A stretch of 64,000 nt of DNA, from positions 1-64,000 of the forward strand of contig LQXN01000066.1 of NCBI GenBank assembly GCA_001648575.1, given 5' to 3'. This DNA comes from Sutcliffiella horikoshii DSM 8719. Its GTDB lineage: Bacteria; Bacillota; Bacilli; Bacillales; Bacillaceae_I. Both the position numbers and the translations under genes were made by a program. Below are positions 695-52,622 of this stretch, one piece after another. The first letter of the stretch is position 1. Each line of letters starts with the position of its first letter. The notes beneath the pieces were generated by a model. It searched no databases, was not told where the DNA came from, and saw only the letters and a list, made by a program, of their open reading frames with translations.

Positions 695-714
695 GGACTT
701 TTTAAAAGGGTCCT
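695..714 (+). terminator. Terminator hairpin, left duplicate
   Basis: GGACTTTTTAAAAGGGTCC follows the 466-693 gene by two bases. Eighteen of 19 bases recur at 936-954 on the far side of the repeat element, so this is one half of a duplicated terminator. The left copy lacks a T-tract because the element begins there. Confidence 0.6.
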
Positions 715-934
715 CAGTGTGTAGACAAAGTTATTTTATCTTTGAGATATGCAAAACCTATGTAGATCGTAGTGGAAGGCGCGCAGACTTCTGCGGGAGG
801 AAGGGACAAGGAAGACCCCGCAGGGCGTAAGCCCGAGGAGGCTTCCGGACCGCCTGCGAAAAGCGAAGCGCCTGGAACGAAGATCAACAGCAGGATGCAA
901 ATTTAAAAATATTTAGGGCTTTGTCAACAGTCTG
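715..934 (+). repeat. Terminator-associated repeat element, copy 1 (220 bp)
   Basis: Outer ends CAGTGTGTAGACAAAG (715-730) and CTTTGTCAACAGTCTG (919-934) are imperfect inverted repeats. Inside are two AT-rich arms and a GC-rich core bounded by GTAGATCGTAGTGGAAGG and GAACGAAGATCAAC. The core is full of short self-complementary blocks (CTGCGGGAGG, CCCCGCAGGGCG, CCCGAGGAGG). There is no credible reading frame. Related copies lie at 10384, 20065, 35682, 44633, 51984 and 52303. It is flanked by duplicated terminator hairpins at 695-714 and 936-962. Together with them it fills the gap between the 466-693 gene and kynU. Confidence 0.85.
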
Positions 935-935
935 T

Positions 936-962
936 GGACTCTTTAAAAGGGTCCTTTTTTTA
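936..962 (+). terminator. Terminator hairpin, right duplicate
   Basis: GGACTCTTTAAAAGGGTCC followed by a run of seven T. It duplicates 695-713 with one difference and keeps the T-tract. Confidence 0.65.
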
Positions 963-1058
963 TTTTGGCTAAAAGCAATAAAGATTCTTGATGAAACCCT
1001 TTGTCAAACTTTATTGAAAAATGAGATAATACGCATGAAGGTAAAGGGGGAATACATA

Positions 1059-2330
1059 ATGTCGATTATTATGGAACAAATACGAAAATGGGATGAAGAG
1101 GATTCCTTGAAAGAATATCGAAATGAATTTTATATAAAAGAAAACTCTATCTATATGGATGGGAATTCACTTGGACTATTATCGAAAAGAGCGGAATCTT
1201 CGTTATTGAATTTATTGGATTCATGGAAGAATCTTGGGATAGATGGTTGGACAAGTGGGGAGGAGCCTTGGTTTTATTTTGCTGAAAAGCTTGGCGAGTT
1301 AAGTGCACCATTGGTTGGAGCAAAAAAAGAAGAAGTGATGGTAACAGGGTCCACAACGGGTAATTTGCATCAGTTATTGGCAACGTTCTATCAACCAGAA
1401 GGAAAAAAGACAAAAATTGTCGCGGATGAATTAAACTTCCCATCTGACATTTATGCCATCCAGAGTATTTTGAAGTTGAAAGGGCTGGATCCGCAAGAGC
1501 ATCTTATAAGAGTTAAAAGCAGGGACGGGCATACCATCCATGAGGAGGATATTATCCAATCCTTGAATGAAGAGGTTGCTGTTCTAGTGTTACCGACTGT
1601 GCTGTACCGAAGTGGCCAACTTTTTGATATCAAAAAAATAACAAAGGCTGCACATGAAAAAGGGGTTATCGTCGGATGGGATGGTTGCCACTCTGTTGGG
1701 GCCATTCCGCACGAATTCCACAATTGGGGAGTTGATTTTGCATATTGGTGCAATTATAAATACCTAAACGCAGGTCCTGGTGGTGTAGGTGCCCTATTTA
1801 TACATGTAAAGCATTTTGATAGGACACCTGGTTTAACGGGCTGGTTCGGTTCGGATAAACAGAAGCAGTTTGATATGGAACATACTTTTACCGCTGCAGC
1901 TACGAGCGGGGCATATCAAATTGGGACACCTCATATTTTCAGCATGGCACCATTGCTCGGGTCATTACAAATGTTTGGAGAGATAGGGATGGAGAAAATC
2001 CGTAATAAATCCCTGCACCAGACAAGAGTTTTGATGGAACTGATTGTACAAGAGCTTTCCGGATTTGATTTCCGGCTTGCTAACCCAAAAGAGGATGCCC
2101 GCCGTGGAGGTCATGTCAGCCTCGAACATCCTGAGGCAGCCCGAATCTGTAAATCTTTGAAGGAACTGGGAGTTGTACCGGATTTCCGTAAACCGAACAT
2201 TATTCGGCTTGCTCCTGCTGCACTCTATACAACATACAAAGATGTCTATGACACGGTTCAAATAATAAAGCGGATTATGCAAGAAAAACATTATGAAAAG
2301 CACTCGAATGAACGGGAAGTAGTGGCATAA
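1059..2330 (+). CDS. kynU: Kynureninase
   Basis: Cytosolic PLP enzyme that cleaves L-kynurenine (or 3-hydroxykynurenine) to anthranilate (or 3-hydroxyanthranilate) and alanine in tryptophan degradation. The 423-residue product has the family length. Features seen are the N-terminal [10 protein letters not shown], a GSTTGN loop, WDGCHSVGA with the PLP-binding Asp, and the Schiff-base lysine in [12 protein letters not shown] (about K234). The start is the ATG at 1059, preceded by GTAAAGGGGG; longer upstream reading runs into the repeat and terminator. A kynurenine formamidase gene follows after 15 bases, so the two form an operon. Tryptophan 2,3-dioxygenase (kynA), normally the third member in Bacillus kyn clusters, is not next to them. 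Confidence 0.95.
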
Positions 2331-2345
2331 GGGGGATGGGAAACA

Positions 2346-2969
2346 ATGAAAGTATACGATATTTCAAGACCACTAAGTGAGAAAACACCTACATGGCCAG
2401 GGGATACTCCCTTCAGCTATAATGTTAACTGGTCAAAGCAACACACAGGCTCCGTAAATGTCGGGAGTGTAAAGATGAGTGTCCATACGGCAACACATGT
2501 GGATGCACCATATCATTTCGATGATAAAGGCAAAAGGATGGATGAATTGGACCTATCCGTCTTCATTGGTCAAGCCATAGTAGTGGATGTGAGCAAGCAT
2601 CAGTCAGTGGAGTTAGACCATGTAGAGGGGCTGCTCACCCTGCATCCGACAAAGCGGATCCTATTTAAAACGAATGCATGGAAAGAGAAAGAAAAGTTTC
2701 CTACTGACATACCGACTCTATCAGCCGACGTGGTAAGGCTACTAGGGAGTTTACATACACCACTGATCGGTGTAGATCTTCCAAGTGTTGATTATCTGGA
2801 CAGCAAGGAATTGCCGATACACCATGCCCTGCACCAAGCCAACATCTGCATCCTAGAAGGGATAGATTTGTCAGAAGTAGAAGAAGGGGAATACGAGTTG
2901 ATCGCCCTTCCATTAAAGCTCAAAGGAACTGATGGAAGCCCTGTAAGAGCAATACTCGTGAAGAATTAG
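2346..2969 (+). CDS. kynB: Kynurenine formamidase (arylformamidase)
   Basis: Hydrolyses N-formyl-L-kynurenine to kynurenine and formate, the step before KynU. The 207-residue product belongs to the cyclase/formamidase metal-dependent hydrolase family. It opens with YDISRPLSEKTPTWPGD and carries the metal-binding motif HTATHVDAPYHF (His47, His51, Asp53). The C-terminal part has GVDLPSVD and the ILEGIDL stretch typical of bacterial KynB. The ATG is preceded by GGGGGATGGG, and the gene lies 15 bases after kynU in the same operon. No clear terminator is seen in 2970-3169. Without a neighbouring kynA, the supply of N-formylkynurenine must come from a distant gene or another source. Confidence 0.93.
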   Translation: MKVYDISRPLSEKTPTWPGDTPFSYNVNWSKQHTGSVNVGSVKMSVHTATHVDAPYHFDDKGKRMDELDLSVFIGQAIVVDVSKHQSVELDHVEGLLTLHPTKRILFKTNAWKEKEKFPTDIPTLSADVVRLLGSLHTPLIGVDLPSVDYLDSKELPIHHALHQANICILEGIDLSEVEEGEYELIALPLKLKGTDGSPVRAILVKN

Positions 2970-3169
2970 TTTCAAGGAAATAAACCAGCTTCCCTAGTGA
3001 ACAGTGGTGGAGGGTGTTCCACTGACAGTAGGATAGAGGCCCTCATCCCTCGTTAACACAGCGGAAAGCAAACTAACAGAACCGTCAGCAGGAGTTAAAA
3101 CTACCATGATTTGCTTTCCCCTTCATGATTTCATACAATAGACCTAATCTATTTAGGTGAGGGTCAAAG

Positions 3170-3892
3170 ATGAAAAAATGGCAAAAAAACACATTGGTTA
3201 CCATCGGTATCATTTTAAGTGTAGCAGCAGCAGCCTGTCTCTACCTTCTTGCTACACCTTATAAACTAGTCAATCAAGAAAGCATGCAATCAACAGAAAG
3301 TGTAATTGTCAAGGAAGATAGAGGTTGGATTTCTTTTTTTCCAACAGAAGAAAGCGAAGAGACCGGAGTGATTTTCTACCCAGGGGGGAGAGTGGAGGCG
3401 GCAGCATATGCCCCGATTGCAAAAATGGTAGCCGAAGAAGGTGTACCTTTCATTATTGCTAAAATGCCTCTTCATCTCGCAGTTTTAAATCCTGATAAAG
3501 CAGATAAAGTAATCAAGGAGTTTGAGGATAGGGAATGGGTTATTGCGGGTCACTCCCTTGGCGGCGCAATGGCGGCAAGGTATGTGAAAAATAACCCCGA
3601 GAAAGTTACCGGCCTTATTTTGATGGCAGCGTATCCACCAGAAGCAGATGACCTATCTGCCTTTAAAGGGGATGTCATCACGATTGAAGGTCAGCTTGAT
3701 GGAGTGATTGATGAGATTGCCTTGACAGAAGGGGATGCAAGGTTGCCATCCCAGACATATACCATTATCATCCAAGGGGGGAACCATTCTCAGTTTGGTG
3801 ATTATGGATTGCAAAAAGGGGATAATAAAGCGCAGATATCGAAAGAAGAGCAATGGAAACGTGTTGTCCAAGGGATTGTAAGGAGCTTTTAA
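3170..3892 (+). CDS. Membrane-anchored alpha/beta hydrolase
   Basis: A 240-residue protein with one N-terminal membrane segment (about residues 8-28) followed by an extracytoplasmic alpha/beta-hydrolase domain of the Abhydrolase_5 type. Visible motifs are YPGGRVEAAAYAP near the oxyanion region, the nucleophile elbow GHSLGG (Ser about 129), an acid candidate in IEGQLDGVID, and the catalytic His in GGNHSQFGDYG (about 206). It is a hydrolase or esterase of unknown substrate. The ATG has AGGTGAGGG upstream. It is convergent with the germination operon and shares a strong hairpin terminator with it. Confidence 0.85.
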   Translation: MKKWQKNTLVTIGIILSVAAAACLYLLATPYKLVNQESMQSTESVIVKEDRGWISFFPTEESEETGVIFYPGGRVEAAAYAPIAKMVAEEGVPFIIAKMPLHLAVLNPDKADKVIKEFEDREWVIAGHSLGGAMAARYVKNNPEKVTGLILMAAYPPEADDLSAFKGDVITIEGQLDGVIDEIALTEGDARLPSQTYTIIIQGGNHSQFGDYGLQKGDNKAQISKEEQWKRVVQGIVRSF

Positions 3893-3910
3893 ACAAATTT
3901 ACTAATTAAG

Positions 3911-3954
3911 AAAGAGGAGAAGGTTCAGGAATTATCCTGTACCTTCTCCTCTTT
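3911..3954. terminator. Bidirectional terminator
   Basis: Long stem AAAGAGGAGAAGGT / ACCTTCTCCTCTTT with inner CAGGA/TCCTG and an ATTA loop, sitting between the convergent hydrolase and gerC-type genes. A-rich and T-rich flanks on the two sides allow use in both directions. Confidence 0.85.
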
Positions 3955-3983
3955 AATTAAGGCTATTTTCGTAAACATATGGT

Positions 3984-5123
3984 TTAATTTATTATCCCTG
4001 TCCCAGTTATATCCACACTGACAGTTGGGATAATCTCAATGGAAGGGTAGACCTCTCTCCATTTAAGCTCTTTCCATGTTTTATTATGGTGCACTTTCAA
4101 ATGTTGACCTATATGAAGGATGTCACTATTCGCCTCTTGAATAATCTTGATCACTTCTTCTGCCTGTATTTGAATATTCTCAGTCGCTTTTTCTTCTAGT
4201 TCTTTGACAGCTTTTTTATCAACTAGATGATTTTTAGGGTACTCTGCAATTGTCCCGGTTATTTTCATGTCTAGGTGCACTTTTATATCGGAGGGGGAGT
4301 TTACCTCTGCTTTCATTTTTGTTTTTGATTTTACTATATTCAATGTCATATACCGATTTCTAATGTTTTCTTCCTCAGGCTTGACCATCATATTCAATTG
4401 TGCAATTTTTCCTTTTTTATTAGCAAGCATCAATAACACGGTGGAGTGTGCCGCATCCAATGTTACCCCGGTATATTTCCTCTCGCTAATCAGTCCCATT
4501 CCAACTACCTCAATATCATGTGGTTCAATCTTTTTTATGACGGGAAGCGAAAAATCAGCACTAGGATCGAACATGACAGGACAAACGGTCTGAACGGTTT
4601 CATTCTGAAGGATGGTATGATCTTCGGAGTTTTCCAACATGCCGATTATACCCTCAGTCAACATGGTTTCCTTGATTACTTTCATATCAATCACATCTTC
4701 TGCTTTCCCTTGTGCAATGACAAGCTTGGCACCCAATGGGGATTTGGGATCCCGATAAAGAATATCCAAGATAGAGTATATATCTTGCTTCGCCAGTTCT
4801 TCTCCCATCAGATAGACCCGCATCTTACTTGGTGAAAACTCCCCTGGGATCCTCCGGTCTAGCATTAATCTCGTATCTCTGAGTGTAATACCGTCACCTT
4901 CCACAACCACATTGATTTGCTCACCGGGTTTTCCGCCAACGCTAAATTTTTTCGTTTCTCGTAGGGCAACATGGGACCTTATTTCTCCATTTTCAGATAA
5001 ATCAAATCCAACTGTAAATACAAGCTTCAAATCTTTTAATAATCTCTGGTCCCAGCAACCAGTCAAAAGCAATACAGATAAAAGGATACTTATTAAACTG
5101 ATGAATTTACGATGAGGAACCAT
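3984..5123 (-). CDS. Spore germination receptor lipoprotein, GerC family
   Basis: C subunit of a GerA-type nutrient germinant receptor, anchored to the outer face of the spore inner membrane. The 379-residue precursor has a lipoprotein signal ending in LLLTGC (Cys23) followed by WDQRLLKDL, typical of GerAC/GerKC proteins. The family's three-domain body follows, with GDGITLRDTR and PRHDI-like (IEPHDIEV) segments. It is the last gene of an A-B-C operon transcribed leftward, and its start overlaps the end of the B subunit gene by 17 bases, suggesting translational coupling. The germinant cannot be deduced, so the paralog name is left open. Confidence 0.93.
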   Translation of the reverse strand: MVPHRKFISLISILLSVLLLTGCWDQRLLKDLKLVFTVGFDLSENGEIRSHVALRETKKFSVGGKPGEQINVVVEGDGITLRDTRLMLDRRIPGEFSPSKMRVYLMGEELAKQDIYSILDILYRDPKSPLGAKLVIAQGKAEDVIDMKVIKETMLTEGIIGMLENSEDHTILQNETVQTVCPVMFDPSADFSLPVIKKIEPHDIEVVGMGLISERKYTGVTLDAAHSTVLLMLANKKGKIAQLNMMVKPEEENIRNRYMTLNIVKSKTKMKAEVNSPSDIKVHLDMKITGTIAEYPKNHLVDKKAVKELEEKATENIQIQAEEVIKIIQEANSDILHIGQHLKVHHNKTWKELKWREVYPSIEIIPTVSVDITGTGIIN

Positions 5124-6219
5124 GATTGTTTTCCCCCTTTCCGAATTTCTTCTTCACCAAGGCTATCACCAGAAACAGTAGCGGTAAGATAAAGGCAAAT
5201 GAGAACACAATGTATTGAAAAACTTTTCCTATGTCTGCCATAAAAAATTTATCCTGCAAGAAAAATCCCGAAATGAATATCGGAACACAAATTATTGGTA
5301 CAAATGGTGAGTGAGACTCTGTGTGAAACAATTCCTTCAAACCTTTGCTTGCCTGGTACAAATAGATGATAAATGAATTTGTCATCGGGATTACCCAAAT
5401 GGAAAGGAATATGAGATCAAGTCTCTCTATCACTTCAAAAGATATTGCTTTCAGCATGTAAAGTACCGGTTCTGGCACAAGTGTCATTTCTTCCGGGCTG
5501 AAAATAATCAAACTCGTGAAGACAAGAAATGTATAGATGGTAACGGTTGTGATGTTAGCAAGGGTCAATGTTTTCATGGTTCCTTTTGTCTGTTTAAGCA
5601 TCGGGTAAATGATAAGTATTAGTTCAAAGCCGGTTAGGGCTATGAGAACTTCTTTGATAGCCAAAAATATATTTTTCAATCCCCCTTCTCCAACCGGGAG
5701 GATATAAGATAAATTAGTATCTCCATATACAGTGACAACCATGAGGACAAAAAAGACAATGACACCGGTGGACAGGCTGAAAAAGCGGGCAATCATCAGT
5801 ATATTGTCCGTTGCCAAATAGACACTCACGATAATAATCAAAATATAAATCATCCAAAAGGGGGTTAAAGTCAAGATCCAATTGTTAATTATACCTGTCT
5901 GCAAAGCTGCCACTAGTCCTGCAATGGCTATGAAATATATTATATAAAAAACAGTAAATATACTGCCGATAAACCTGCCTAAAAGATGTCTCAGTAGCTG
6001 GTAGAGGTTTTTTTCGGGATAGAACTTAGCAAGCTTTAAAGTAATGAACATCCAAATCTGAATAACAAATCCAGCCAGTATGGTGGAAATCCAGCCGTCC
6101 CCTTTCGCAATACTATGAACGGCGAAAGGCAAAGAGAGGATCCCGACCCCAATTTGAGCTTGCATAATAAGAAAGAACAACTGCCCTTGACTTATGCTTT
6201 TTTCATGGATCTTTAGCAT
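5107..6219 (-). CDS. Spore germination receptor permease subunit, GerB family
   Basis: B subunit of a GerA-type germinant receptor, an APC-superfamily-like integral membrane protein of the spore inner membrane thought to bind the nutrient germinant. The 370-residue protein shows about ten hydrophobic segments. It begins MLKIHEKSISQGQLFFL, with the GVGILSLPF unwound-helix signature of the first transmembrane region. The start at 6219 is chosen because AGGAGG stands five bases upstream, whereas a longer reading would overlap the A subunit gene. The gene starts 11 bases after the A gene and overlaps the C gene. Confidence 0.93.
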   Translation of the reverse strand: MLKIHEKSISQGQLFFLIMQAQIGVGILSLPFAVHSIAKGDGWISTILAGFVIQIWMFITLKLAKFYPEKNLYQLLRHLLGRFIGSIFTVFYIIYFIAIAGLVAALQTGIINNWILTLTPFWMIYILIIIVSVYLATDNILMIARFFSLSTGVIVFFVLMVVTVYGDTNLSYILPVGEGGLKNIFLAIKEVLIALTGFELILIIYPMLKQTKGTMKTLTLANITTVTIYTFLVFTSLIIFSPEEMTLVPEPVLYMLKAISFEVIERLDLIFLSIWVIPMTNSFIIYLYQASKGLKELFHTESHSPFVPIICVPIFISGFFLQDKFFMADIGKVFQYIVFSFAFILPLLFLVIALVKKKFGKGENNHGSSS

Positions 6220-6229
6220 GGGATCCTCC

Positions 6230-7672: not shown

Positions 7673-7713
7673 TTCTCCATCACATCCTTTAAAAGTGTTT
7701 GTTTACTATATTT

Positions 7714-7742
7714 TCCTATGTAAGAGTCGTAATTATGCATGT
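7714..7742 (-). promoter_or_regulatory. Candidate SigG-type promoter for the ger operon
   Basis: Read on the minus strand, ACATG, a 17-base spacer, then CATAGGA. This partly fits the SigG pattern (GHATR, 17-18 bases, CATnnTA) and lies about 40 bases before the gerA-type start. The -10 departs from consensus at its last bases. Confidence 0.3.
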
Positions 7743-7798
7743 ATGTTGTACTTCTTTTGTTATACTTAAAAACAATAGATATTATCCGGGAGTTTTTG

Positions 7799-10090: not shown

Positions 10091-10094
10091 ACTT

Positions 10095-10180: not shown

Positions 10181-10366
10181 ATGAGCAAGAAGCTTCAAAA
10201 GGCTCTTGAGCAACAACGAGAATATTATATTAACAAGCTTCTTTTGATAGGTGTATATGATACCCTTGTTCTTGATGGAATGACCACAACGGAATTAAAA
10301 ACGGAATATCAATACTTCTTTTATGACGTTCCGAGTAAAAAAGCTACTTTAATAAAAAAGGCATGA
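10181..10366 (+). CDS. FbpA-like small basic protein
   Basis: A 61-residue basic peptide (63 if the ATG at 10175 is used) resembling the Fur-regulated basic protein A family: KLQKALEQQREYYINKLLLIGVYD followed by TTTELKTEYQYFF. In B. subtilis, Fbp proteins act with the FsrA small RNA in the iron-sparing response; no Fur box is evident here, so regulation is open. GGGAG lies 10 bases before 10181 and 4 before 10175. Its last codons GCA TGA fall inside the hairpin at 10357-10383, and the same hairpin is repeated beyond a repeat element, where it holds the stop codon of the convergent mscS gene. Confidence 0.7.
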   Translation: MSKKLQKALEQQREYYINKLLLIGVYDTLVLDGMTTTELKTEYQYFFYDVPSKKATLIKKA

Positions 10367-10383
10367 CCTCCCGGGTTATGCCT
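10357..10383. terminator. Terminator hairpin, left duplicate (contains fbpA-like stop)
   Basis: GGCATGACC TCCC GGGTTATGCC stem-loop overlapping the stop codon of the FbpA-like gene. It is near-identical to 10592-10616 on the other side of the inserted element. Confidence 0.75.
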
Positions 10384-10588
10384 CGGACTGATGACAAACT
10401 ATATATTAGTAAGGTTATTTGTTGGAACAGTTGATCTCCGTTGCAGGAGCTTCGCTTTCCAGCGGGCGGTCCGTAAGCCTCCTTACTCCGTTGCGGGGCC
10501 TTACCTGTCCCTTCTTCCCGCAGGAGTCTTCGCTCCTTCCACTACAATCAACAGGGAATTTATAACTCGTAAAGAGCTTTGTCTACAC
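10384..10588 (-). repeat. Terminator-associated repeat element, copy 2
   Basis: Reverse-oriented copy. Left end CGGACTGATGACAAAC, core GTTGATCTCCGTTGCAGG ... CACTACAATCAAC, right end CTTTGTCTACAC. It lies between duplicated copies of the bidirectional terminator shared by the FbpA-like gene and mscS. Confidence 0.85.
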
Positions 10589-10620
10589 AAAAAGGCATAA
10601 CCTCCTGGGTTATGCCTTTT
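10589..10620. terminator. Terminator hairpin, right duplicate (contains mscS stop)
   Basis: AAAGGCATAACC TCCT GGGTTATGCCTTTT. On the minus strand the mscS stop codon TAA (10610-10612) lies within the stem, and a T-run follows on both strands. Confidence 0.85.
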
Positions 10621-19984: not shown

Positions 19985-20037
19985 TTATCTCATGCCAGTT
20001 TATTTCCGATTCATGCAACCAGAACATACATAAAAAG

Positions 20038-20064
20038 AACCCAGAGTATCTATACTCTGGGTTT
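20038..20064. terminator. Terminator hairpin, left duplicate
   Basis: AACCCAGAGTA TCTA TACTCTGGGTT, a perfect 11-pair stem, followed by T. All 26 bases recur at 20247-20272 beyond the element. Confidence 0.85.
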
Positions 20065-20246
20065 CAGTGTGTAGACAAAGTTATTTTTTCTTTGAGATAT
20101 ATGAAAAACCTTTGTTGATCGTAGTGGAAGGCGCGCAGACTTCTGCGGGAGGCTTCCGGACCGCCCGCGAAAAGCGAAGCGCCTGGAACGAAGATCAACA
20201 GCAGGATGCAAATTTTAAAATATTTAGGGCTTTGTCAACAATCTTG
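20065..20246 (+). repeat. Terminator-associated repeat element, copy 3 (internally deleted)
   Basis: Ends CAGTGTGTAGACAAAG (20065-20080) and CTTTGTCAACAATCTTG. Compared with copy 1, about 41 bases of the core are missing; the join lies at a repeated GGGAGG/GAGG word (TGCGGGAGGCTTCCGG), suggesting loss by recombination or slippage between short repeats. It lies between exact duplicates of the rsgI/sspD terminator. Confidence 0.85.
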
Positions 20247-20274
20247 AACCCAGAGTATCTATACTCTGGGTTTT
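20247..20274. terminator. Terminator hairpin, right duplicate
   Basis: Same 26-base hairpin as 20038-20063 without a mismatch, followed by TT. On the minus strand it serves the sspD gene. Confidence 0.85.
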
Positions 20275-35587: not shown

Positions 35588-35650
35588 CCCCTGGAACGAT
35601 AATCAACTGTTCCAACAGATAACTTAACTATTTATAGTTTGTCAACAGTG
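35588..35650 (+). repeat. Right-end remnant of a terminator-associated repeat element
   Basis: CCTGGAACGATAATCAAC, an AT-rich arm and GTTTGTCAACAGTG match the last about 60 bases of full copies. The left part is missing, so the ArsR-type stop codon abuts the truncated core. Confidence 0.7.
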
Positions 35651-35681
35651 AAAAGAATCCATCATCCACTAATGGATCCTT
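35651..35681. terminator. Terminator hairpin, left duplicate
   Basis: AGAATCCATCATCCACTAAT followed by GGATCCTT; 28 of 31 bases match 35889-35919. It lies between the remnant and copy 4, so three element/terminator junctions are stacked here. Confidence 0.65.
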
Positions 35682-35888
35682 CAGTGTGTAGACAAAGTAC
35701 AGTAATAAAAAAACCTAGTTGATCGTAGTGGAAGGAGCGGAGACTCCTGCGGGAGGAAAGGACATGGAAGACCCCGCAGGGCGTAAGCCCGAGGAGGCTT
35801 CCGGACTGCCCGCGGAAAGCGAAGCTCCTGCAACGAAGATCAACTGTCCCAGCAGATACTCTAACTAAAGTAGAGTTTGTCAACAGTG
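35682..35888 (+). repeat. Terminator-associated repeat element, copy 4
   Basis: Ends CAGTGTGTAGACAAAG (35682-35697) and GTTTGTCAACAGTG (35875-35888), core GTTGATCGTAGTGGAAGG ... GCAACGAAGATCAAC. Flanked by terminator duplicates and preceded by a truncated older copy. Confidence 0.85.
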
Positions 35889-35921
35889 AAAAGGATCCAT
35901 TATCCATTAATGGATCCTTTT
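35889..35921. terminator. Terminator hairpin, right duplicate
   Basis: AAAAGGATCCATTA TCCA TTAATGGATCCTTTT, an almost perfect palindrome with A and T runs on both sides, serving the ArsR gene and the convergent mtnA. Confidence 0.8.
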
Positions 35922-38234: not shown

Positions 38235-38444
38235 AAAAATAAAAGCCCCTTTCCATAAGAAAGAGGCTTGAAGCTTTAACTTCTCCCCTCTTATCTGCCA
38301 GAAGTCACTTCTGCTGGAATTAGCACCGTGCCTTATGAACGATTACGTTCGGCGTCACAATTGTAACGCCCTGTCTCACAACAGTATTACGGTCGGTTGC
38401 TGGGTTTCATCGGGCCAAATCCCTCCACCTGCTCTTGATAAGAG
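38235..38444 (-). promoter_or_regulatory. SAM-I (S-box) riboswitch of mtnKA
   Basis: On the minus strand the P1 strands CTCTTATC and GATAAGAG enclose the S-box core: AGCAGGTGGAGGGA, GGCCCGATGAAACCCAGCAA and GGTGCTAATTCC. An extended P3/P4 region makes the aptamer about 157 bases (38288-38444). The expression platform is a terminator AAGCCTCTTTC TTATG GAAAGGGGCTTTT (38235-38269). A 21-base palindrome lies just upstream of P1 (38446-38466). Confidence 0.95.
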
Positions 38445-38466: not shown

Positions 38467-38949
<483 letters not shown>

Positions 38950-38963
38950 TGCTAGCCAAATAG

Positions 38964-38991
38964 AAAAGGACTCCATTTCGGGGTCCTTTTT
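38964..38991 (+). terminator. Terminator after csp
   Basis: AAAGGACTCC ATTTC GGGGTCCTTTTT, a strong stem with T-tract. Confidence 0.9.
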
Positions 38992-39001
38992 GTTATGAGA
39001 A

Positions 39002-41091: not shown

Positions 41092-41134
41092 CTCAACTAG
41101 AATTTATTGAATTTTATATTAATGATAATCCAAT

Positions 41135-41284
41135 CTTATCAAGAGCAGGTGGAGGGACTAGCCCGATGAAACCCGGCAACCGACTTAACCAAGTTAAGCA
41201 CGGTGCTAAATCTTGCAGCATGAAGCTGATAGATAAGAGGAAGTTAGATATAGACTAACCTCTTCTAATCGAAGGGGTTATTTG
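41135..41284 (+). promoter_or_regulatory. SAM-I (S-box) riboswitch of mtnWXBD
   Basis: Aptamer 41135-41237 with CTTATC/GATAAG P1, AGCAGGTGGAGGGA, GCCCGATGAAACCCGGCAAC and GGTGCTAAATC; terminator AACCTCTTC TAATC GAAGGGGTT at 41257-41282. Transcription should continue when SAM is scarce. Confidence 0.96.
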
Positions 41285-44481: not shown

Positions 44482-44608
44482 GTAAATATTAAAGGCTGTT
44501 TTCCCTGTTGTGCTAAGAATGCGACTTGCAGAATATAATCAATAAAAAGCCCAAATGCCGACTTTTTACATGCGAATAGCAACAATCTTTGAGAAAAGAG
44601 CTTTATTA

Positions 44609-44632
44609 AAAGATGATCCTTTGGGGTCATCT
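44609..44632. terminator. Terminator hairpin, left duplicate
   Basis: AGATGATCC TTTG GGGTCATCT (44611-44632), identical over 22 bases to 44853-44874. Confidence 0.75.
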
Positions 44633-44852
44633 CAGACTGTTGACAAAGCCCTAAATATTCTTATATTTGCATCCTGCTGTTGATCTTCGTTCCAGGCGCT
44701 TCGCTTTTCGCGGGCATCCCGGAAGCCTCCTCGGGCTTACGCCCTGCGGGATCTTCCCTGTCCCTTCCTCCCGCAGAAGTCTGCGCGCCTTCCACTACGA
44801 TCAACACAGGTTTTGCATATCTCTAAGATAAAAAAACTTTGTCTACACACTG
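44633..44852 (-). repeat. Terminator-associated repeat element, copy 5 (220 bp)
   Basis: Reverse-oriented full-length copy: left end CAGACTGTTGACAAAG (44633-44648), core GTTGATCTTCGTTCCAGGCG ... CACTACGATCAAC, right end CTTTGTCTACACACTG (44837-44852). Same length as copy 1. Exact 22-base terminator duplicates flank it. Confidence 0.9.
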
Positions 44853-44880
44853 AGATGATCCTTTGGGGTCATCTTTTTTT
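44853..44880. terminator. Terminator hairpin, right duplicate
   Basis: AGATGATCC TTTG GGGTCATCT followed by a run of T. Exact repeat of 44611-44632. Confidence 0.85.
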
Positions 44881-44904
44881 ATAAGATAAAAAATATAAAA
44901 AAAT

Positions 44905-44990: not shown

Positions 44991-45204
44991 GCCTATAACA
45001 AACTATGAAGTATTAAGGACCGGGCGGTTTTCACCCGGATTTTCTTATTGAGAAAATTAGAAATGGATGTAGGGTTTTCTTAATAAGCTTTAAAGTTTCT
45101 GGAACAAAAAGCTGCAGGAGTCAAAGTTTTGATGACTATTTTCATATACAAGAGGGAATATAATGGTAGATAATGCAGTTATAACATCACTAGGAGGAAA
45201 CTCA

Positions 45205-46551: not shown

Positions 46552-46655
46552 CTTCGAAAGTAGTTAAAATATTATGAATTTTCTTTACCCATTATGTCAA
46601 ATATGCTAATGTAAAAGTAGCTTTATACATACATATCGTTGAAGGAGTGAAAGAG

Positions 46656-47294
46656 ATGAAGGTCCGCTACAATTTCGTGCCCAAGCATGATGTACAGTAC
46701 TGTGAACCAACTTATACAATAAAACAGGCATACGATAAGATCAAGAATACCGGTTATCGGTGCATTCCTATACTTTCTAACGATGGCCATGACTTCCTGG
46801 GGCTTGTTTACAAAGTTCATTTGCTGGATTACCTTTATGAACAAAAGGGCAGTGAAGAGGATTCCATAGAAGTATTGATTAAAAATCAAGATGCATTCAT
46901 CTTTGAAGAAGACTCCTTTTTTAAGGCTTTCTTTACAATCAAACGCCTGCCGTTTATTGCAGTGTTGAATGAAGAGAATGAGTTTCTGGGGATATTGACA
47001 CATGCAAATGTCATGGATGTGCTGGCAGATTCTTTCGGCATGAAGACAGGAGGATACACCCTTACCATTGCAACAATTGAACATAAAGGAGCCATCAAAG
47101 ATCTCGTATCCATGTTGAAGGATATCAATATTGACGGTATGCTCACACTGGATAACGGAGAAAAATATTTAAGACGTATCATCGTGAATCTTCCAGCTGA
47201 ATTGCCTGAAGAGAAATTAAACAAAGTGGTAAAAAAGCTTGGAGAGAAAGAATTTAGAGTTACTCACGTAGACCAAATTGATGTGCATAAATAA
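46656..47294 (+). CDS. CBS-CBS-ACT domain protein (CbpA-like, possible c-di-AMP binder)
   Basis: A 212-residue cytosolic protein with two CBS motifs (about 1-55 and 75-130; GYRCIPILSNDGHDFLGLVY and LPFIAVLNEENEFLGILTHANVMDVL) and a C-terminal ACT-like domain (about 135-205; YTLTIATIEHKGAIKDLVSML). The arrangement matches proteins named CbpA that bind cyclic di-AMP in Listeria and relatives; binding here is inference. ATG at 46656 has GAAGGAG eight bases upstream. A terminator shared with the convergent deacetylase follows. Confidence 0.82.
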   Translation: MKVRYNFVPKHDVQYCEPTYTIKQAYDKIKNTGYRCIPILSNDGHDFLGLVYKVHLLDYLYEQKGSEEDSIEVLIKNQDAFIFEEDSFFKAFFTIKRLPFIAVLNEENEFLGILTHANVMDVLADSFGMKTGGYTLTIATIEHKGAIKDLVSMLKDINIDGMLTLDNGEKYLRRIIVNLPAELPEEKLNKVVKKLGEKEFRVTHVDQIDVHK

Positions 47295-47301
47295 AATGAC
47301 G

Positions 47302-47337
47302 CGAGCGGACCCCTAAAATGGAGACCGCTCGTTTTTT
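47302..47337. terminator. Bidirectional terminator
   Basis: CGAGCGG(AC) ... (GA)CCGCTCG followed by TTTTTT, between the CBS-ACT gene and the convergent deacetylase-like gene. Confidence 0.8.
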
Positions 47338-48118
47338 AGTGCAGCAAAATTTCCTTGTCGATTAAAATATTTGATAAAGTGACTATTTCCGCCTTATCCC
47401 TTAATTTGGGTATATATTGCTTCAAAACGCTTGCAGTCTTTTCGCCTACCACCCCAACATGGCCGATTGCAATGATGGAGTCATCGACTTCCGTTTTTTT
47501 TATCAACTGAGTAGTTTGCTTTACGATGTGGTTGGTGGTGAAAACTTCGTCAAAGAATAGTTCGTTTTCTAAAAAAGGCACACCAATTTCTGTTGCCAAT
47601 TCAGCTACTACGCTCTTTTTTGAAGTTTTGCTGTCAAGGTAATAAAGGTTTCTCTCCTTGCATATCTCCAAGATGACCCTCATGATCCGTTTATCTGCTG
47701 TAATTTTAGAACCCATATGATTATTTATCCCGACTGCATGTGGAACAGAATCAATGGCATCATTCACCCTGGTGTATATTTCTTCATTTGATAGGTTGGA
47801 TGTAATGGCTCCAGGACCAAGCCAGCTCTTCTTACCCTTTAATGGCTCCATTGGAAGATGCAATATCACCTCATGGCCTAAACTATGTGCCATTTCAGCA
47901 TCTTTTTGGGTGGTGGATAGAAACGGCATCACCGCCACTGTCAGTGTTGCAGGTAAGCGAAGTATCTCTTCTGTGCCTTTCATGTTATTGCCGAGATCAT
48001 CAATTACAATCGCGACTTTATTACTGTTATGTTCTTCAGCTGAAGAAATTTGACTAAAGAAACTAAAAAAAATGGAACAACTAATTATCAGTACCAACGA
48101 TCTTTTCAAAATATCCAC
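47336..48118 (-). CDS. Divergent polysaccharide deacetylase family protein (YibQ-like)
   Basis: Exported protein of 260 residues with an N-terminal signal peptide (about 1-27, SLVLIISCSIFFSFF, cleavage near SSAEE). A divergent polysaccharide-deacetylase domain (PF04748 type) follows: VAIVIDDLGNN with the metal-binding Asp pair, GHEVILHLPMEP with His, GINNHMGSKIT, YYLDSKTS and AIGHVGVV. These proteins have a NodB-like barrel but unproven activity. Substrate unknown, presumably cell-envelope glycan. Confidence 0.88.
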   Translation of the reverse strand: MDILKRSLVLIISCSIFFSFFSQISSAEEHNSNKVAIVIDDLGNNMKGTEEILRLPATLTVAVMPFLSTTQKDAEMAHSLGHEVILHLPMEPLKGKKSWLGPGAITSNLSNEEIYTRVNDAIDSVPHAVGINNHMGSKITADKRIMRVILEICKERNLYYLDSKTSKKSVVAELATEIGVPFLENELFFDEVFTTNHIVKQTTQLIKKTEVDDSIIAIGHVGVVGEKTASVLKQYIPKLRDKAEIVTLSNILIDKEILLH

Positions 48119-48325
48119 CCACTTCGATTTAATTCGACAAATATTGTATAGGTATAATAATGGGAATAAACTTATAACCTTACTCTGTCAGGTAGCTTTA
48201 TATTATTTTCATCTTTAATGAAAAATAAATTCAATGAAAAAAATGTCTAATTTTGCGATTCTATTTACAAAAATAGAAATTATTGTAATAATTTTTAAAG
48301 TGTATTAAAGAGAGAGAAGGGGCGA

Positions 48326-48505
48326 ATGACATTGTCATATGAAGGGTATGTAGATCAATTGTTATTGCTTATAAAAGAAAAAAGGGACAATATGATCACC
48401 GTTGCAAATAAAACTGGATATGTTAGTGACCAGACGGTGAAATGCAGTCAGGATTTAGACAAGCTGATTTATAAATATCAGGAAATGATATATGAAAAGA
48501 AATAA
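48326..48505 (+). CDS. Spo0E-like aspartyl-phosphate phosphatase
   Basis: A 59-residue helical-hairpin protein with the Spo0E-family signature CSQDLDKLIYKYQ (SQxLD motif) near the C-terminus, preceded by an N-terminal helix DQLLLLIKEKRDNMITVA. Such proteins dephosphorylate Spo0A-P and restrain sporulation. GAGAGAAGGGGCG lies just before the ATG at 48326. It is shorter than many annotation cut-offs and easily missed. It opposes the output of the KinE-like kinase also found in this window. Confidence 0.85.
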   Translation: MTLSYEGYVDQLLLLIKEKRDNMITVANKTGYVSDQTVKCSQDLDKLIYKYQEMIYEKK

Positions 48506-48551
48506 AGTGTTTATCTATAGGCTGACCACTATTGTAATAAAGAGTCCAAAT

Positions 48552-48584
48552 AAAAAAAGCCGCCCACAAAGAACGGCTAAAAAA
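48552..48584 (-). terminator. Terminator after ZIP transporter
   Basis: On the minus strand AGCCGTTC TTTGT GGGCGGCT followed by seven T; it starts within the stop codon of the gene. Confidence 0.85.
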
Positions 48585-49308
48585 TCTGGATTAAAAATAT
48601 CATAAACAATATACCGATAATAAAAGAATATGTAGATGACGTTTCGTGTCCATCCCCATGACTTTCGGGAATCAGTTCCTTATATATGATATACAGCATG
48701 GCCCCTGCAGCAAATGCAAGTCCATACGGTACAAGAGAGGCAACAACCGAAGTCAAATAGAAGCCGAGAATTGCCATCGGTACTTCCACTGCACCAGTTA
48801 ATGTAGCAACCAAAAACGCCTTTAACCTGGTTATTTTTTGATTGATTAGAAATAATGCCACTAAAAAACCCTCGGGAGCATTTTGTAACCCTATCGCAAA
48901 TGCAATCAGATTTCCTGTATCTGCCGTATCAGAAGCATAACTAACTCCAACAGAAAGACCTTCTGGAATATTGTGCAGCGTAATAGCAGCTACAATTAGC
49001 ATTGCTTTCTGATCAAAAGCAATACCTCTTCTATTGTGCTCAAGATCTATATGTGGAATGGACTTTTCAAGCAACGTCAGAACTATGACGCCAAAAAGCA
49101 ACCCTACCCCCAAAGGAAGAAAACCCCCATAAGCCAATGCTTCCGGTATCAAGCTTAAAGTTGCTGCAGCCATCATGATCCCTGCAGTAAAAGCTAGCAA
49201 CGTGTCTTTCCATCTATGCGATAATGAGTTCTTTAAAAAGAGGATAGGCAAGGCTCCCACACCAGTAGACATGGCAGCAAGGACACTTCCAAGTAAAGCT
49301 TCTTTCAT
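48577..49308 (-). CDS. ZIP-family metal transporter
   Basis: Integral membrane divalent metal transporter of 243 residues with about eight transmembrane segments. The signature helices are AAITLHNIPEGLSVGVSYA and AIGLQNAPEGFLVALFL, carrying the conserved His/Asn-x-x-x-Glu metal site of ZIP proteins. A short histidine-containing loop (ESHGDGHETS) precedes the last helix. Likely Zn2+ or Mn2+/Fe2+ transport; direction and metal are not decided by sequence. Monocistronic. Confidence 0.92.
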   Translation of the reverse strand: MKEALLGSVLAAMSTGVGALPILFLKNSLSHRWKDTLLAFTAGIMMAAATLSLIPEALAYGGFLPLGVGLLFGVIVLTLLEKSIPHIDLEHNRRGIAFDQKAMLIVAAITLHNIPEGLSVGVSYASDTADTGNLIAFAIGLQNAPEGFLVALFLINQKITRLKAFLVATLTGAVEVPMAILGFYLTSVVASLVPYGLAFAAGAMLYIIYKELIPESHGDGHETSSTYSFIIGILFMIFLIQIF

Positions 49309-49511
49309 TTCGATAATTCCTTTCTGTCTCTATTCCCTCAAGAAGCAGGTATCACTAATGTATTAAAGATATTGTACCAATATTACTGGCATATACAAAG
49401 GGATAGATATATATATAGTCGATTTGATATTGCATGGTTGCTCTTCGTGACCAGTCCTTTATTGCTATTGTAATTCAAATTCAGCAGGTTAGGGATCTAT
49501 GATTGACAAAA

Positions 49512-49578
49512 TCTAGAATATACATTGACGAAAGCTTTAGATTGCTATACCATTAGTTTTAATTCAAGATATTCTAGA
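49512..49578 (+). promoter_or_regulatory. Inverted repeat TCTAGAATAT / ATATTCTAGA before the MarR gene
   Basis: Ten-base arms at 49512-49521 and 49569-49578, perfectly complementary and 47 bases apart, flank the probable promoter (TTGACG at 49525). The second arm ends 22 bases before the start codon. Possibly paired half-sites of an autoregulated MarR operator. Confidence 0.4.
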
Positions 49579-49600
49579 AAAAATAAAAGGAATGACTATA

Positions 49601-50050
49601 ATGGCAGAAAGACACGAGCTCGATACTTCATTAAAACTTTTTATCGTCCTGTCCAGAGCTTTTCGTGCAATAAACGATCAAGCAAACCAATCCATTCAAA
49701 GTTTTCAATTAAACCCGACTGAGTTTGCCGTCCTTGAACTACTCTATCATAAAGGCGACCAACCATTGCAACAGATCGGCGGGAAAATATTGTTGGCAAG
49801 CGGAAGCATCACCTATGTAGTGGACAAACTCGAAAGTAAAGGACTACTGGCCCGCAAGGCCTGTCCAAAAGACAGAAGGGTAACCTATGCCCAAATCACC
49901 GACGATGGGAAAAAACTGCTCCAAGAAATCTTCCCTAAACATGAACAACATATCCACGGATTAATGGACGGCCTGACACACCAAGAAAAAGAACAAGCCA
50001 TCCAACTCATCAAAAAACTCGGCCTAAACGTAAAAGCCACCAAAAAATGA
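49601..50050 (+). CDS. mhqR: MarR-family regulator, MhqR-like
   Basis: Winged-helix repressor of 149 residues. It begins MAERHELDTSLKLFIVLSRAF and has the DNA-recognition part PLQQIGGKILLASGSITYVVDK and wing CPKDRRVTYAQITDDGKK. Sequence style and chromosomal place (between the mtn cluster and clpE) match B. subtilis MhqR (YkvE), which controls azoreductase and dioxygenase genes in the quinone stress response; the symbol rests on that. ATG at 49601 is preferred over 49592 since AAAAGGA is nine bases before it. A terminator overlaps the stop. Confidence 0.8.
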   Translation: MAERHELDTSLKLFIVLSRAFRAINDQANQSIQSFQLNPTEFAVLELLYHKGDQPLQQIGGKILLASGSITYVVDKLESKGLLARKACPKDRRVTYAQITDDGKKLLQEIFPKHEQHIHGLMDGLTHQEKEQAIQLIKKLGLNVKATKK

Positions 50051-50077
50051 CCTTCCCACCGCGGAGGTCATTTTTTG
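50042..50077 (+). terminator. Terminator after mhqR
   Basis: AAAAATGACCT (loop CCACCGC region) AGGTCATTTTTT, overlapping the gene end. Confidence 0.8.
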
Positions 50078-50111
50078 TGTTTAGGGAGGGGGTGAAAAAA
50101 ATGTTGAAAAG

Positions 50112-50124
50112 GGGGTCAGACCCC
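50112..50124. repeat. GGGGTCAGACCCC palindromic word
   Basis: Perfect short hairpin followed by CACAAGGAATTT. The companion at 28748-28760 (GGGGTCTGACCCC, followed by CAAAGGAATTT) shares both the palindrome and the 3' word, suggesting a small dispersed repeat. Confidence 0.45.
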
Positions 50125-50193
50125 ACAAGGAATTTCGTCAAACATGTCGAATACATTATAGGTTAGTAATGTTTTGTAAGGGGGAAAATACAT

Positions 50194-51888
50194 ATGAGAT
50201 TTGAGGATTTTAGTTATACTCGTCCGAATGTGGATGAGGTGGAGAAGATGTTTATGGCTGCTTTGGAGAGCTTTGAGGCGGCAGGTTCTGTTGGGGAGCA
50301 GGAGAAGGCTATTCAAGCTATCAATGATGTCCGCAATAATTTAAGTTCGGACTTTAATTTGGTGTATATACGCCATTCCATTGATACGAATGATGAGTTT
50401 TACAAGCAGGAACAGGATTTCCTGGATGAAATTGAGCCTTTGACGAAATCATGGGATACAAAATTTTATAAAGCGCTCGTTAAGTCACCTTACCGCAAGG
50501 AACTGGAAGCTAAGTGGGGAACTCAGCTCTTCGCATTGGCGGAATGTGAACTAAAGACGTTTGATGATTCGATAATAGAAGACTTGCAGCTTGAAAACAA
50601 ATTATCTACAAAATACTCTAAGCTGGTCGCTTCTGCAAAAATTGATTTCAATGGCGAAGAGCTGACCCTTGCGCAATTGGATCCTTATACTGAATCAGAA
50701 GACAGGGAAGTCCGCAAAAAAGCAAGTGAAGCGAAATTCGGCTTTTTCCAGGAAAACCATCAAGAATTCGATGATATTTTCGATCAGCTTGTTAAAGTAA
50801 GAACGAAAATGGCAAAAAAACTAGGTTATGATAACTTTATTGAGCTTGGCTACGCACGGATGACAAGAACGGACTATAATGCAGAAATGGTTGCGAAATT
50901 CCGTAATCAAGTAAAGGATTCAATTGTTCCACTGGTAGAAAAGCTGGCTGAAAGGCAACAGGAACGTATTGGTGTCGATTCCCTGAAGTATTATGACGAA
51001 GGTTTTAAGTTCCAGTCTGGAAACGCAAAACCTAAAGGATCACCTGAATGGATTATCGAAAACGGAAAACAAATGTATGAAGAGCTTTCTGTGGAAACGA
51101 AAGAATTCTTCCAATTTATGATTGATAAGAATTTGATGGACCTTGTTGCGAAAAAAGGGAAGGAAGCAGGGGGCTATTGCACCTATATCCCAACCTACAA
51201 GTCACCATATATTTTCTCTAACTTCAATGGTACAAGTGGTGATATTGACGTTCTGACACATGAAGCCGGACATGCTTTCCAAGTATATATGAGTCGTGAT
51301 TTTGATGTGCCGGAATACAACTGGCCAACTTATGAAGCATGTGAGATTCACTCGATGAGCATGGAATTCTTTACATGGCCGTGGATGCAGTTGTTCTTCA
51401 AGGAGGACACAGAAAAGTACAAGTTTTCACATCTTAGTGGGGCGATTTCATTCCTTCCGTATGGTGTAGCAGTTGATGAATTCCAACATTTCGTATACGA
51501 AAATCCGGAAGCGACTCCAGTGGAAAGAAATAAGGCTTGGAGAGAAATAGAGAAGAAATATTTGCCAGGTCGCAATTATGATGGAAACTCTTACTTAGAG
51601 GCGGGTGGCTTCTGGCAACGCCAAGGTCATATCTACCGTTCACCGTTCTACTATATTGATTACACACTTGCTCAAATTTGTGCATTACAATATTGGAAGC
51701 TTGCACAAGAGAATCCAGAAACAGCGTGGAAATCCTACTTGGAGCTATGTAAGCAAGGTGGAAGCAAGTCATTTGTAAACTTGGTGAAATTCGCTGGACT
51801 TCGCTCTCCATTTGAAGATGGATGTGTAGAGTCGGTAGTTGGCGAAATCGAGTCATATTTAAATGATGTCAACGATAAAGCTCTATAA
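50194..51888 (+). CDS. M3-family oligoendopeptidase (PepF-like)
   Basis: Cytosolic zinc oligopeptidase of 564 residues. The metal motif HEAGHAFQ starts at about His356, with the third ligand Glu in EACEIHSMSMEFFTWPW. LPGRNYDGNSYLEAGGFWQRQGHIYRSPFYYIDY near the C-terminus is the substrate-binding region typical of M3B proteins. It processes short peptides. GTAAGGGGGAAAATACAT precedes the ATG. Its terminator is duplicated around repeat copy 6. Confidence 0.93.
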   Translation: MRFEDFSYTRPNVDEVEKMFMAALESFEAAGSVGEQEKAIQAINDVRNNLSSDFNLVYIRHSIDTNDEFYKQEQDFLDEIEPLTKSWDTKFYKALVKSPYRKELEAKWGTQLFALAECELKTFDDSIIEDLQLENKLSTKYSKLVASAKIDFNGEELTLAQLDPYTESEDREVRKKASEAKFGFFQENHQEFDDIFDQLVKVRTKMAKKLGYDNFIELGYARMTRTDYNAEMVAKFRNQVKDSIVPLVEKLAERQQERIGVDSLKYYDEGFKFQSGNAKPKGSPEWIIENGKQMYEELSVETKEFFQFMIDKNLMDLVAKKGKEAGGYCTYIPTYKSPYIFSNFNGTSGDIDVLTHEAGHAFQVYMSRDFDVPEYNWPTYEACEIHSMSMEFFTWPWMQLFFKEDTEKYKFSHLSGAISFLPYGVAVDEFQHFVYENPEATPVERNKAWREIEKKYLPGRNYDGNSYLEAGGFWQRQGHIYRSPFYYIDYTLAQICALQYWKLAQENPETAWKSYLELCKQGGSKSFVNLVKFAGLRSPFEDGCVESVVGEIESYLNDVNDKAL

Positions 51889-51954
51889 GCAACAAGTTTA
51901 AATTAAATAATTAAATGCATATTTTTAAGTAACTAAATATTTTCAATGAGAGTG

Positions 51955-51983
51955 AAGCTGCCGTATTCAGATACGGCAGCTTT
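51955..51983. terminator. Terminator hairpin, left duplicate
   Basis: AAGCTGCCGTAT TCAG ATACGGCAGCTTT; 27 of 29 bases match 52193-52221. Confidence 0.8.
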
Positions 51984-52192
51984 CAGTGTGTAGACAAAGG
52001 TTAAAATAATGAAATTTCCTAGTTGATCGCAGTGGAAGGAGCGAAGACTCCCGCGGGAGGAAGGGACATGTAAGACCCCGCAGGCGAAGCCGAGGAGGCT
52101 TACGGACCGCCCGCAGAAAAGCGAAGCTCCTGCAACGGAGATCAACTGTTCCAACAGATAACTTAACTTATGTATAGTTTGTCTACAAGCTG
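51984..52192 (+). repeat. Terminator-associated repeat element, copy 6
   Basis: Left end CAGTGTGTAGACAAAG (51984-51999), core GTTGATCGCAGTGGAAGG ... GCAACGGAGATCAAC, right end GTTTGTCTACAAGCTG (52177-52192). Flanked by duplicated terminators of the M3 peptidase gene. Confidence 0.88.
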
Positions 52193-52221
52193 AAGCTGCC
52201 GTATTCAGCTGCGGCAGCTTT
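52193..52221. terminator. Terminator hairpin, right duplicate
   Basis: AAGCTGCCGTATTCAG followed by CTGCGGCAGCTTT. Two mismatches to the left copy, one of them weakening the stem. Confidence 0.7.
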
Positions 52222-52302
52222 AACATGGCTTTTTCTTTCACTTTCAAGTCAAATTTTGTAGAATAGAGGATGTAGTATAATGAAAAAATGATGTAAATCA
52301 TT

Positions 52303-52511
52303 CCAGAGTATAGATAAAGCTTAAAATAATGATAATCCCTAGTTGATCGCAGGGGAAGGCGCGCAACCTCCCGCGGGAGGAAGGGACATATTAGACCCCG
52401 CATGCAAAGCTGAGGAGGCTTACGTACCGCCTTCGGATAAGCGAAGCGCCTGGAACAAAGATCAACTGTTCCAACAGACAACTTAACAAATTTTTAGTTT
52501 TTAACAATCTG
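52303..52511 (+). repeat. Terminator-associated repeat element, copy 7 (degenerate)
   Basis: Ends CAGAGTATAGATAAAG (from 52304) and GTTTTTAACAATCTG (to 52511) are decayed versions of the family ends. The core keeps GTTGATCGCAGGGGAAGG and GGAACAAAGATCAAC. It is flanked by AAATGATGTAAATCATT (52286-52302) and AAATGATGCAAATCATT (52512-52528), again a duplicated palindrome. It lies in the leader of the MurE-like gene, behind a TATAAT at 52275. Confidence 0.8.
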
Positions 52512-52622
52512 AAATGATGCAAATCATTCACTATATTAATGGGAAAAATCGGTAATATACATAAAGATTTAAATGAAGATACTATCATTAACATTTTAGT
52601 ATCAGAAAAGGAAGTGGCCATA

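What the first reader, a model, noticed from the sequence alone, without database searches (positions are those of the whole stretch)
695..52528. Non-coding elements that always sit between two copies of the host gene's own hairpin
Seven roughly 180-220-bp elements (715, 10384, 20065, 35682, 44633, 51984, 52303) share imperfect terminal inverted repeats of the type CAGTGTGTAGACAAAG and a GTTGATC...GATCAAC GC-rich core. Each is bracketed by direct copies of a palindrome unique to that locus: 18/19, about 23/25, 26/26, 28/31, 22/22, 27/29 and 16/17 identical bases. Six are Rho-independent terminators. Since the flanks differ between copies but match within a copy, the element does not carry the hairpin; insertion seems to duplicate the whole target hairpin. 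That would be a safe-site strategy: each insertion leaves a working terminator on both sides. IS1182-type elements are, as I recall, reported to target inverted repeats with long variable duplications, so a non-autonomous relative is one explanation.
Basis: partly seen in the sequence, partly recalled or inferred. Interest (0 to 1): 0.88.

Follow-up and report, generated by a model that had tools for sequence, protein, structure and literature searches.

The report
Mobile elements that duplicate terminator hairpins
Short mobile DNA elements in a relative of Bacillus insert at the hairpins found at gene ends and copy the whole hairpin, so that nearly every element examined sits between two copies of its own target, which suggests that the fold of the DNA rather than its letters marks the target.

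Summary
All seven window elements are bracketed by direct copies of a locus-specific hairpin. In the stretches examined, 99 of 103 end-pairs show such a duplication, against 0.8% of 5,104 mismatched flank pairs. It is 17-38 bp long, abuts the element ends, and is symmetric about the hairpin dyad (71 of 87 exactly). Orthologous sites in relatives mostly carry one hairpin and no element. Full-length IS1182-family elements with similar ends do the same: four identical IS copies in a congener have perfect hairpin duplications of 24, 20, 22 and 27 bp. I conclude: IS1182-type MITEs that duplicate the whole target hairpin. Wan et al. 2017 (PMC5678879) drew this outcome as a possibility; their IS1272 deletes the hairpin. 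Another IS1182 clade appears to duplicate 8-9 bp at the hairpin apex (suggestive). The GC-rich core is a separate repeat. Cruciform targeting is inferred, not shown.

The parts
694..714 (.). left hairpin copy of element 1 (duplicated target)
   Evidence: 20/21 identical to right copy
715..934 (+). element 1 (IS1182-type ends, GC-rich core)
935..955 (+). right hairpin copy of element 1; terminator-like, followed by T-tract
10355..10383 (.). left hairpin copy of element 2
   Evidence: 27/29 identical to right copy; single hairpin in 5 of 5 relatives
10384..10588 (-). element 2 (reverse orientation; its CAGTGTG-type end lies at the right and has decayed)
10589..10617 (.). right hairpin copy of element 2
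20037..20064 (-). left hairpin copy of element 3; terminator-like on the - strand
   Evidence: 28/28
20065..20245 (+). element 3 (short variant)
20246..20273 (.). right hairpin copy of element 3
   Evidence: single hairpin in 5 of 5 relatives
35588..35650 (+). truncated right part of an earlier element copy at the same site (nest)
   Evidence: read by eye; an element with its own duplicated hairpin stands at this site in G014
35651..35681 (.). left hairpin copy of element 4
35682..35888 (+). element 4
35889..35919 (.). right hairpin copy of element 4
44611..44632 (.). left hairpin copy of element 5
   Evidence: 22/22
44633..44852 (-). element 5 (reverse orientation)
44853..44874 (+). right hairpin copy of element 5; terminator-like
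51955..51983 (.). left hairpin copy of element 6
   Evidence: 27/29 (without the chance TG)
51984..52192 (+). element 6; its right end read inwards (CAGCTTGTAGACAAAC) agrees in 15 of 16 bases with the left end of the IS in L098
52193..52221 (.). right hairpin copy of element 6
   Evidence: single hairpin in 5 of 5 relatives
52286..52303 (.). left copy of a weak palindrome at element 7
   Evidence: 17/18
52304..52511 (+). element 7 (degenerate ends)
52512..52529 (.). right copy of the weak palindrome at element 7

Best explanation
The elements are non-autonomous relatives (MITEs) of one clade of IS1182-family insertion sequences. The transposase recognises a stem-loop, most often one just past a stop codon. 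It joins the element's two 3' ends to the two strands at the 5' foot of the hairpin on each strand. Gap repair then copies the whole hairpin on both sides, so the target duplication is as long as the hairpin. Shown by sequence: duplication of the hairpin, symmetry about the dyad, variable length, single hairpin at empty sites, the same habit in full-length IS. Inferred: that the hairpin is extruded (cruciform or single-stranded stem-loop) when attacked, that strand transfer is at the 5' foot, and that an L098-type transposase moved these MITEs.
For: Duplication in 99 of 103 pairs. Dyad-to-junction distance equal in left and right copies in 71 of 87 of the 98 copies tried, r=0.948; 81 of 87 within 1 bp against a shuffled mean of 35 and maximum of 49. 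Length 17-38 bp, so not a fixed stagger. Single hairpin at orthologous sites. Intact IS in L098 with a perfect 30-bp hairpin duplication; four copies of one IS in G011, identical over 1,565 bp, with 24, 20, 22 and 27 bp. Named genomes: 34 of 47 scored loci give a direct repeat; 30 of the 34 hold a contiguous stem of >=6 pairs, against 10% of shuffles. L098 transposase meets NF033551 IS1182 at 477.4 bits, cut-off 270. Other species of the genus: 15 of 20 fetched places show the duplication. Position: 50 tandem, 42 convergent, 2 divergent, 2 at stretch edges, 1 inside a frame, of 97; background gaps 171, 81, 72. Nests hairpin-element-hairpin-element-hairpin at four places, three with elements only 74-80% alike.
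Against: The copies are often imperfect: 38 of 99 are identical. Duplication length correlates only moderately with the hairpin or stem length that I could call (r=0.33, 0.49). Stems often run on beyond the duplication, mostly by A-T pairs (116 of 127 such pairs), so the cut is at the base of the GC-rich stem rather than always at the outermost pair. 4 of 103 pairs, 5 of 20 places in other species and 13 of 47 named loci lack a duplication that I could find. Duplications start with A in 79 and end with T in 84 of 97, so some sequence preference is possible. The only relative with such ends found in this genome is decayed. No transposition assay exists here.
Confidence: 0.82

Rival explanations
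1. The transposase recognises a palindromic sequence in duplex DNA, with cut points measured from sequence cues at the edge of the stem, and no extruded hairpin is needed.
For: Duplications begin with A in 79 and end with T in 84 of 97; the edge is an A-T pair in 60 of 76 symmetric cases.
Against: The distance between the cut points varies, 17-38 bp in the MITE set and 20-27 bp for identical IS copies, which a rigid duplex dimer would not give; the printed hairpins differ freely in sequence.
Confidence: 0.15
2. The elements entered between two hairpins that were already there, or carry the hairpin with them.
For: Double hairpins are what is seen today.
Against: Orthologous sites have one hairpin; hairpins differ between sites and match within a site.
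Confidence: 0.02
3. The elements are functional 3'-end RNA modules kept by the host, and mobility is incidental.
For: Stems diverge less than loops between the two copies (46 of 1,720 stem sites, 48 of 460 loop sites); the core also exists without these ends.
Against: The stem-loop contrast needs only selection on the terminator. Of 44 changed stem pairs none is compensatory and 28 are not a standard pair in at least one copy. End counts (up to 1 mismatch) range from 145 in this genome to none in 8 of 16 genomes of the genus. No Rfam family matches.
Confidence: 0.06

Closest known systems
IS1272 (PMC5678879: abstract, passages and part 1 of the discussion read) and TnSha1 (PMC4923244: passages read), IS1182 family
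   Same: IS1182-family transposase; targets are stem-loops of unrelated sequence, some of them terminators
   Different: The hairpin is deleted wholly or in part and no target duplication is made; here the whole hairpin is duplicated
Model of Wan et al. 2017, Fig 13 pathways b and c (legend and discussion read in PMC5678879)
   Same: Pathway b (strand transfer at the 5' feet, whole stem-loop duplicated) is what is seen here; pathway c (loop duplicated) resembles the L096/L097/L100 clade
   Different: Drawn there as possibilities; no data for b or c in the parts that I read
IS1182 family in general: PMC12056078 (passages), PMC3196728 (passages); Siguier et al. 2015 known only as cited in the papers above
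   Same: Members said to act with or without duplication, on a sequence or a structure; some said to target palindromes
   Different: Not family-wide: ISCaa15 is listed with 4-bp direct repeats in 2 copies (PMC3196728). No detail on whole-hairpin duplication in the passages seen
IS elements in REP palindromes (PMC1525189: search listing and start of abstract only)
   Same: Insertion in extragenic palindromes
   Different: Those targets are a repeated sequence family; here each hairpin is its own

Membership tests
IS1182 family (the presumed partner IS, L098) | Transposase meets the family model | tested here: met
   NF033551 477.4 bits, cut-off 270; PF13751, PF05598, PF01609 over cut-off
IS1182 family (the presumed partner IS, L098) | Conserved acidic catalytic residues and RNase H-type DDE fold | tested here: inconclusive
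   D150, D277, E404 invariant in 13 aligned sequences; that these are the triad is recalled, not assayed. Model pLDDT 81.9; best PDB matches are piggyBac and Tn5 transposases, at TM-scores of only 0.3-0.4
MITE of an IS1182-type element (window elements) | Short, with terminal inverted repeats like those of an IS and no room for a transposase gene | tested here: met
   87 of 103 pairs are 205-224 bp; left end agrees with the L098 left end in 14 of 16 bases (read)
MITE of an IS1182-type element (window elements) | Same kind of target duplication as the parent IS | tested here: met
MITE of an IS1182-type element (window elements) | Mobilised by that IS's transposase | not testable with these tools
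   needs a transposition assay
IS1272-type stem-loop replacement | Target hairpin removed, no duplication | tested here: not met
   flank duplication in 99 of 103 pairs
Rfam RNA family | Match to a curated family | tested here: not met
   no window element matched at gathering scores; element 4 alone was searched below them, only sub-threshold matches

The most novel reading that the evidence does not exclude
Target duplication length in a DDE transposon is not fixed by the geometry of the transposase complex but read off the secondary structure of the target. IS1182 clades attack different points of an extruded hairpin (5' foot, apex, or, as proposed for IS1272, 3' foot), giving whole-hairpin duplication, apex duplication or hairpin deletion. 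In the first mode each insertion makes one more target, so a site can be hit again without losing its gene-end hairpin.
Probability: 0.6. Interest if true: 0.82.

Novelty: new variant of a known kind. Interest (0 to 1): 0.68.

Why it matters
Most DDE transposases leave a duplication of fixed length (general knowledge, no call). A clade in which the length follows the target's fold gives a direct handle on whether and when hairpins are extruded in bacterial chromosomes. It would also explain how a repeat reaches about a hundred copies in gene-dense DNA: it goes to gene ends and multiplies its own targets. Insertion that keeps a hairpin could be useful as a neutral landing site.

Tried and rejected
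Pre-existing tandem hairpins: rejected by empty sites. Element carries the hairpin: rejected by mismatched flank pairs. IS1272-type replacement: not met. A closer intact partner in this genome: PF13751 gave 5 matches, of which only the decayed L009 has these ends within the fetched stretch; L010 has an open 466-aa frame but no such end; L011-L013 are cut by contig edges. The core as a known RNA: no Rfam match. Hairpin boundaries from a first caller were noisy (r=0.33), so I measured dyad-to-junction distances. The null was inflated by tandem nests and that script crashed while saving; one search replaced it. A third IS1182 clade (L092, L093) was looked at; no duplication was recognised and it was not scored.

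Prior reports: ten paper searches. No title or abstract start in the listings told of whole-hairpin duplication by an IS1182 member. Listings were capped (12-20 papers of up to 1,011), four papers were opened, and ISfinder and most subscription journals are not held, so this is no proof that it is unpublished.

Full report
What was examined. The window is part of a 4.68-Mb draft genome of 67 contigs. Its genus is probably Sutcliffiella: the intact transposase of congener G007 (L098) is identical over 448 residues to one on a Sutcliffiella horikoshii plasmid at the same coordinates.

The observation. The seven elements and their bracketing hairpins are as described. The end motif is strongly enriched: 141+130 matches within 3 mismatches, reversed control 12+14. 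I fetched 78 stretches around listed ends; with the window and L009 they held 103 end-pairs, with 33 end-like matches unpaired and unscored. Window elements at 35682 and 52304 are among the unpaired and were checked by hand. The sample favours well-preserved ends. In 99 of 103 the two flanks align with score >=13; 0.8% of 5,104 shuffled pairs do. The duplication touches the left end in 92 of 99 and the right end in 86 of 99. It is 17-38 bp long, mean identity 95%, 38 of 99 identical.

It is the hairpin that is duplicated. A dyad could be called on both sides in 87 of 98 copies. The distance from dyad to element is the same in left and right copy in 71 of 87 (r=0.948; 81 within 1 bp, shuffled maximum 49). 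In 76 symmetric cases the edge of the duplication is an A-T pair in 60, and pairs that run on outside are mostly A-T (116 of 127), so the cut lies at the base of the GC-rich stem. Between the two copies, in 86 of 97 that aligned without gaps and folded, loops differ at 48 of 460 sites and stems at 46 of 1,720. Of 44 changed stem pairs, 16 stay a standard pair by a one-sided change, 28 are not a standard pair in at least one copy and none is compensatory.

Empty sites. For the seven window sites I compared five relatives. At 715, 10384, 20065, 44633 and 51984 all five show one hairpin and no such element. At 35682, G008 and G003 show one hairpin, G014 an element between two copies of its own hairpin, and G005 and G007 are uninformative. 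At 52304 none has the element and the palindrome is weak or absent. Intervals over 420 bases were printed only at their ends. In the window, site 35682 also holds the truncated right part of an earlier element, so this site shows one hairpin, then two, then a nest. Of ten further element sites on the same contig, five gave a single hairpin in the printed interval of G003; five could not be placed.

Re-use of targets. Four places show hairpin-element-hairpin-element-hairpin; in three the two elements are only 74-80% alike, so a second insertion fits better than tandem duplication. L037:10576 and L047:5015 have different hairpins on the two sides; recombination between copies is a possible cause, untested.

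Where they lie. Of 97 copies, 50 are between tandem frames, 42 between converging, 2 between diverging, 2 at stretch edges and 1 within a frame that spans two window elements and is probably spurious. Gaps over 40 bases in the same stretches, element sites included, are 171, 81 and 72. Genes here are mechanical open frames of >=100 aa. Median distance to the facing stop codon is 39 bp (n=92).

Polarity. An outer T- or A-tract (>=5 of 8) is present in 83 of 97. The inner side of the left copy is T-rich in 1 of 97, the outer side of the right copy in 68 of 97. The strict scan found terminators at three of seven window sites, each facing outward. So a transcript would normally pass the first hairpin and the element before meeting a hairpin with a U-tract. 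Whether it ends there is untested.

The partner IS. L009 in this genome is a decayed IS1182-type element with ends CAGCTTGTAGACAAAG and GTTTGTCTACGGTCTG between imperfect copies of a hairpin. L098 in G007 is intact, with a perfect 30-bp hairpin duplication. Four copies of a related IS in G011, identical over 1,565 bp, have perfect duplications of 24, 20, 22 and 27 bp. A scan of named genomes gave 57 loci, of which I scored 47: 34 show a direct repeat, 13 none. Of the 34, 30 hold a contiguous stem of >=6 pairs, against 10% of shuffles; four are not clean junctions (L188, L195, L197, L200). Copies of what looks like one IS, by length and ends, give different lengths in Sporosarcina globispora (23, 21, 20), Bacillus mediterraneensis (16, 19, 21), Paenibacillus apiarius (21, 30) and P. 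glycinis (32, 26). In other species of the genus, 15 of 20 fetched places have the duplicated hairpin.

A second mode. Another IS1182 clade in the genus (L096, L097, L100; 20-23% identical to L098) has ends GAGGCCACTGAAAAA. Seven of ten loci could be paired; all seven give 8-9 bp duplications whose centre is within 1 bp of the called dyad. Six of the seven lie in the core repeat, five are copies of one IS, some stems are weak and the dyad was sought only near the duplication, so this is suggestive. PMC3196728 lists an IS1182 member with 4-bp repeats, so hairpin duplication is not a family-wide trait.

The core. The ~125-bp GTTGAT..ATCAAC core lies between both ends in 103 of 127 full-length matches in the own stretches, which were chosen for such ends. 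In the relatives' stretches 66 of 77 have neither end, several beside terminators and with other flanks. It is thus a dispersed repeat of its own that these ends have picked up. It matches no Rfam family.

Known and new. Terminator hairpins as targets of an IS1182 member are known from IS1272 and TnSha1, which delete the hairpin (PMC4923244, PMC5678879). Wan et al. drew whole-hairpin and loop duplication as alternative outcomes. The present data fit the first in nature, at scale, and hint at the second. I found no report of it in ten capped searches of an open-licence library that lacks ISfinder and most subscription papers.

Noticed in passing
L096, L101, L103, L106, L109, L097, L100: IS1182-family elements with ends GAGGCCACTGAAAAA give 8-9 bp duplications near hairpin apices, six of these seven inside the core repeat.
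   Followed up: partly
window elements; relatives' stretches such as L114, L119, L126: The ~125-bp GC-rich core is a dispersed repeat of its own with several kinds of flanks, not in Rfam; how it moves is unexplained.
   Followed up: partly
L037:10576-10872, L047:5015-5234: Elements with a different hairpin on each side, possibly products of recombination between copies.
   Followed up: no
L213, L217, L218 (G008): Longer element variants of 380-441 bp with duplicated hairpins.
   Followed up: no
window 58-261: PF13751 transposase match near the start of the contig.
   Followed up: no
window 38288-38444, 41133-41239, 58001-58106, 58250-58365: Four SAM riboswitches, two of them in tandem, and a cspA-type match at 38668-38993.
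   Followed up: no
NZ_CP082921.1:65472-66815: An identical copy of the L098 transposase is on a Sutcliffiella horikoshii plasmid, a possible route of spread.
   Followed up: no
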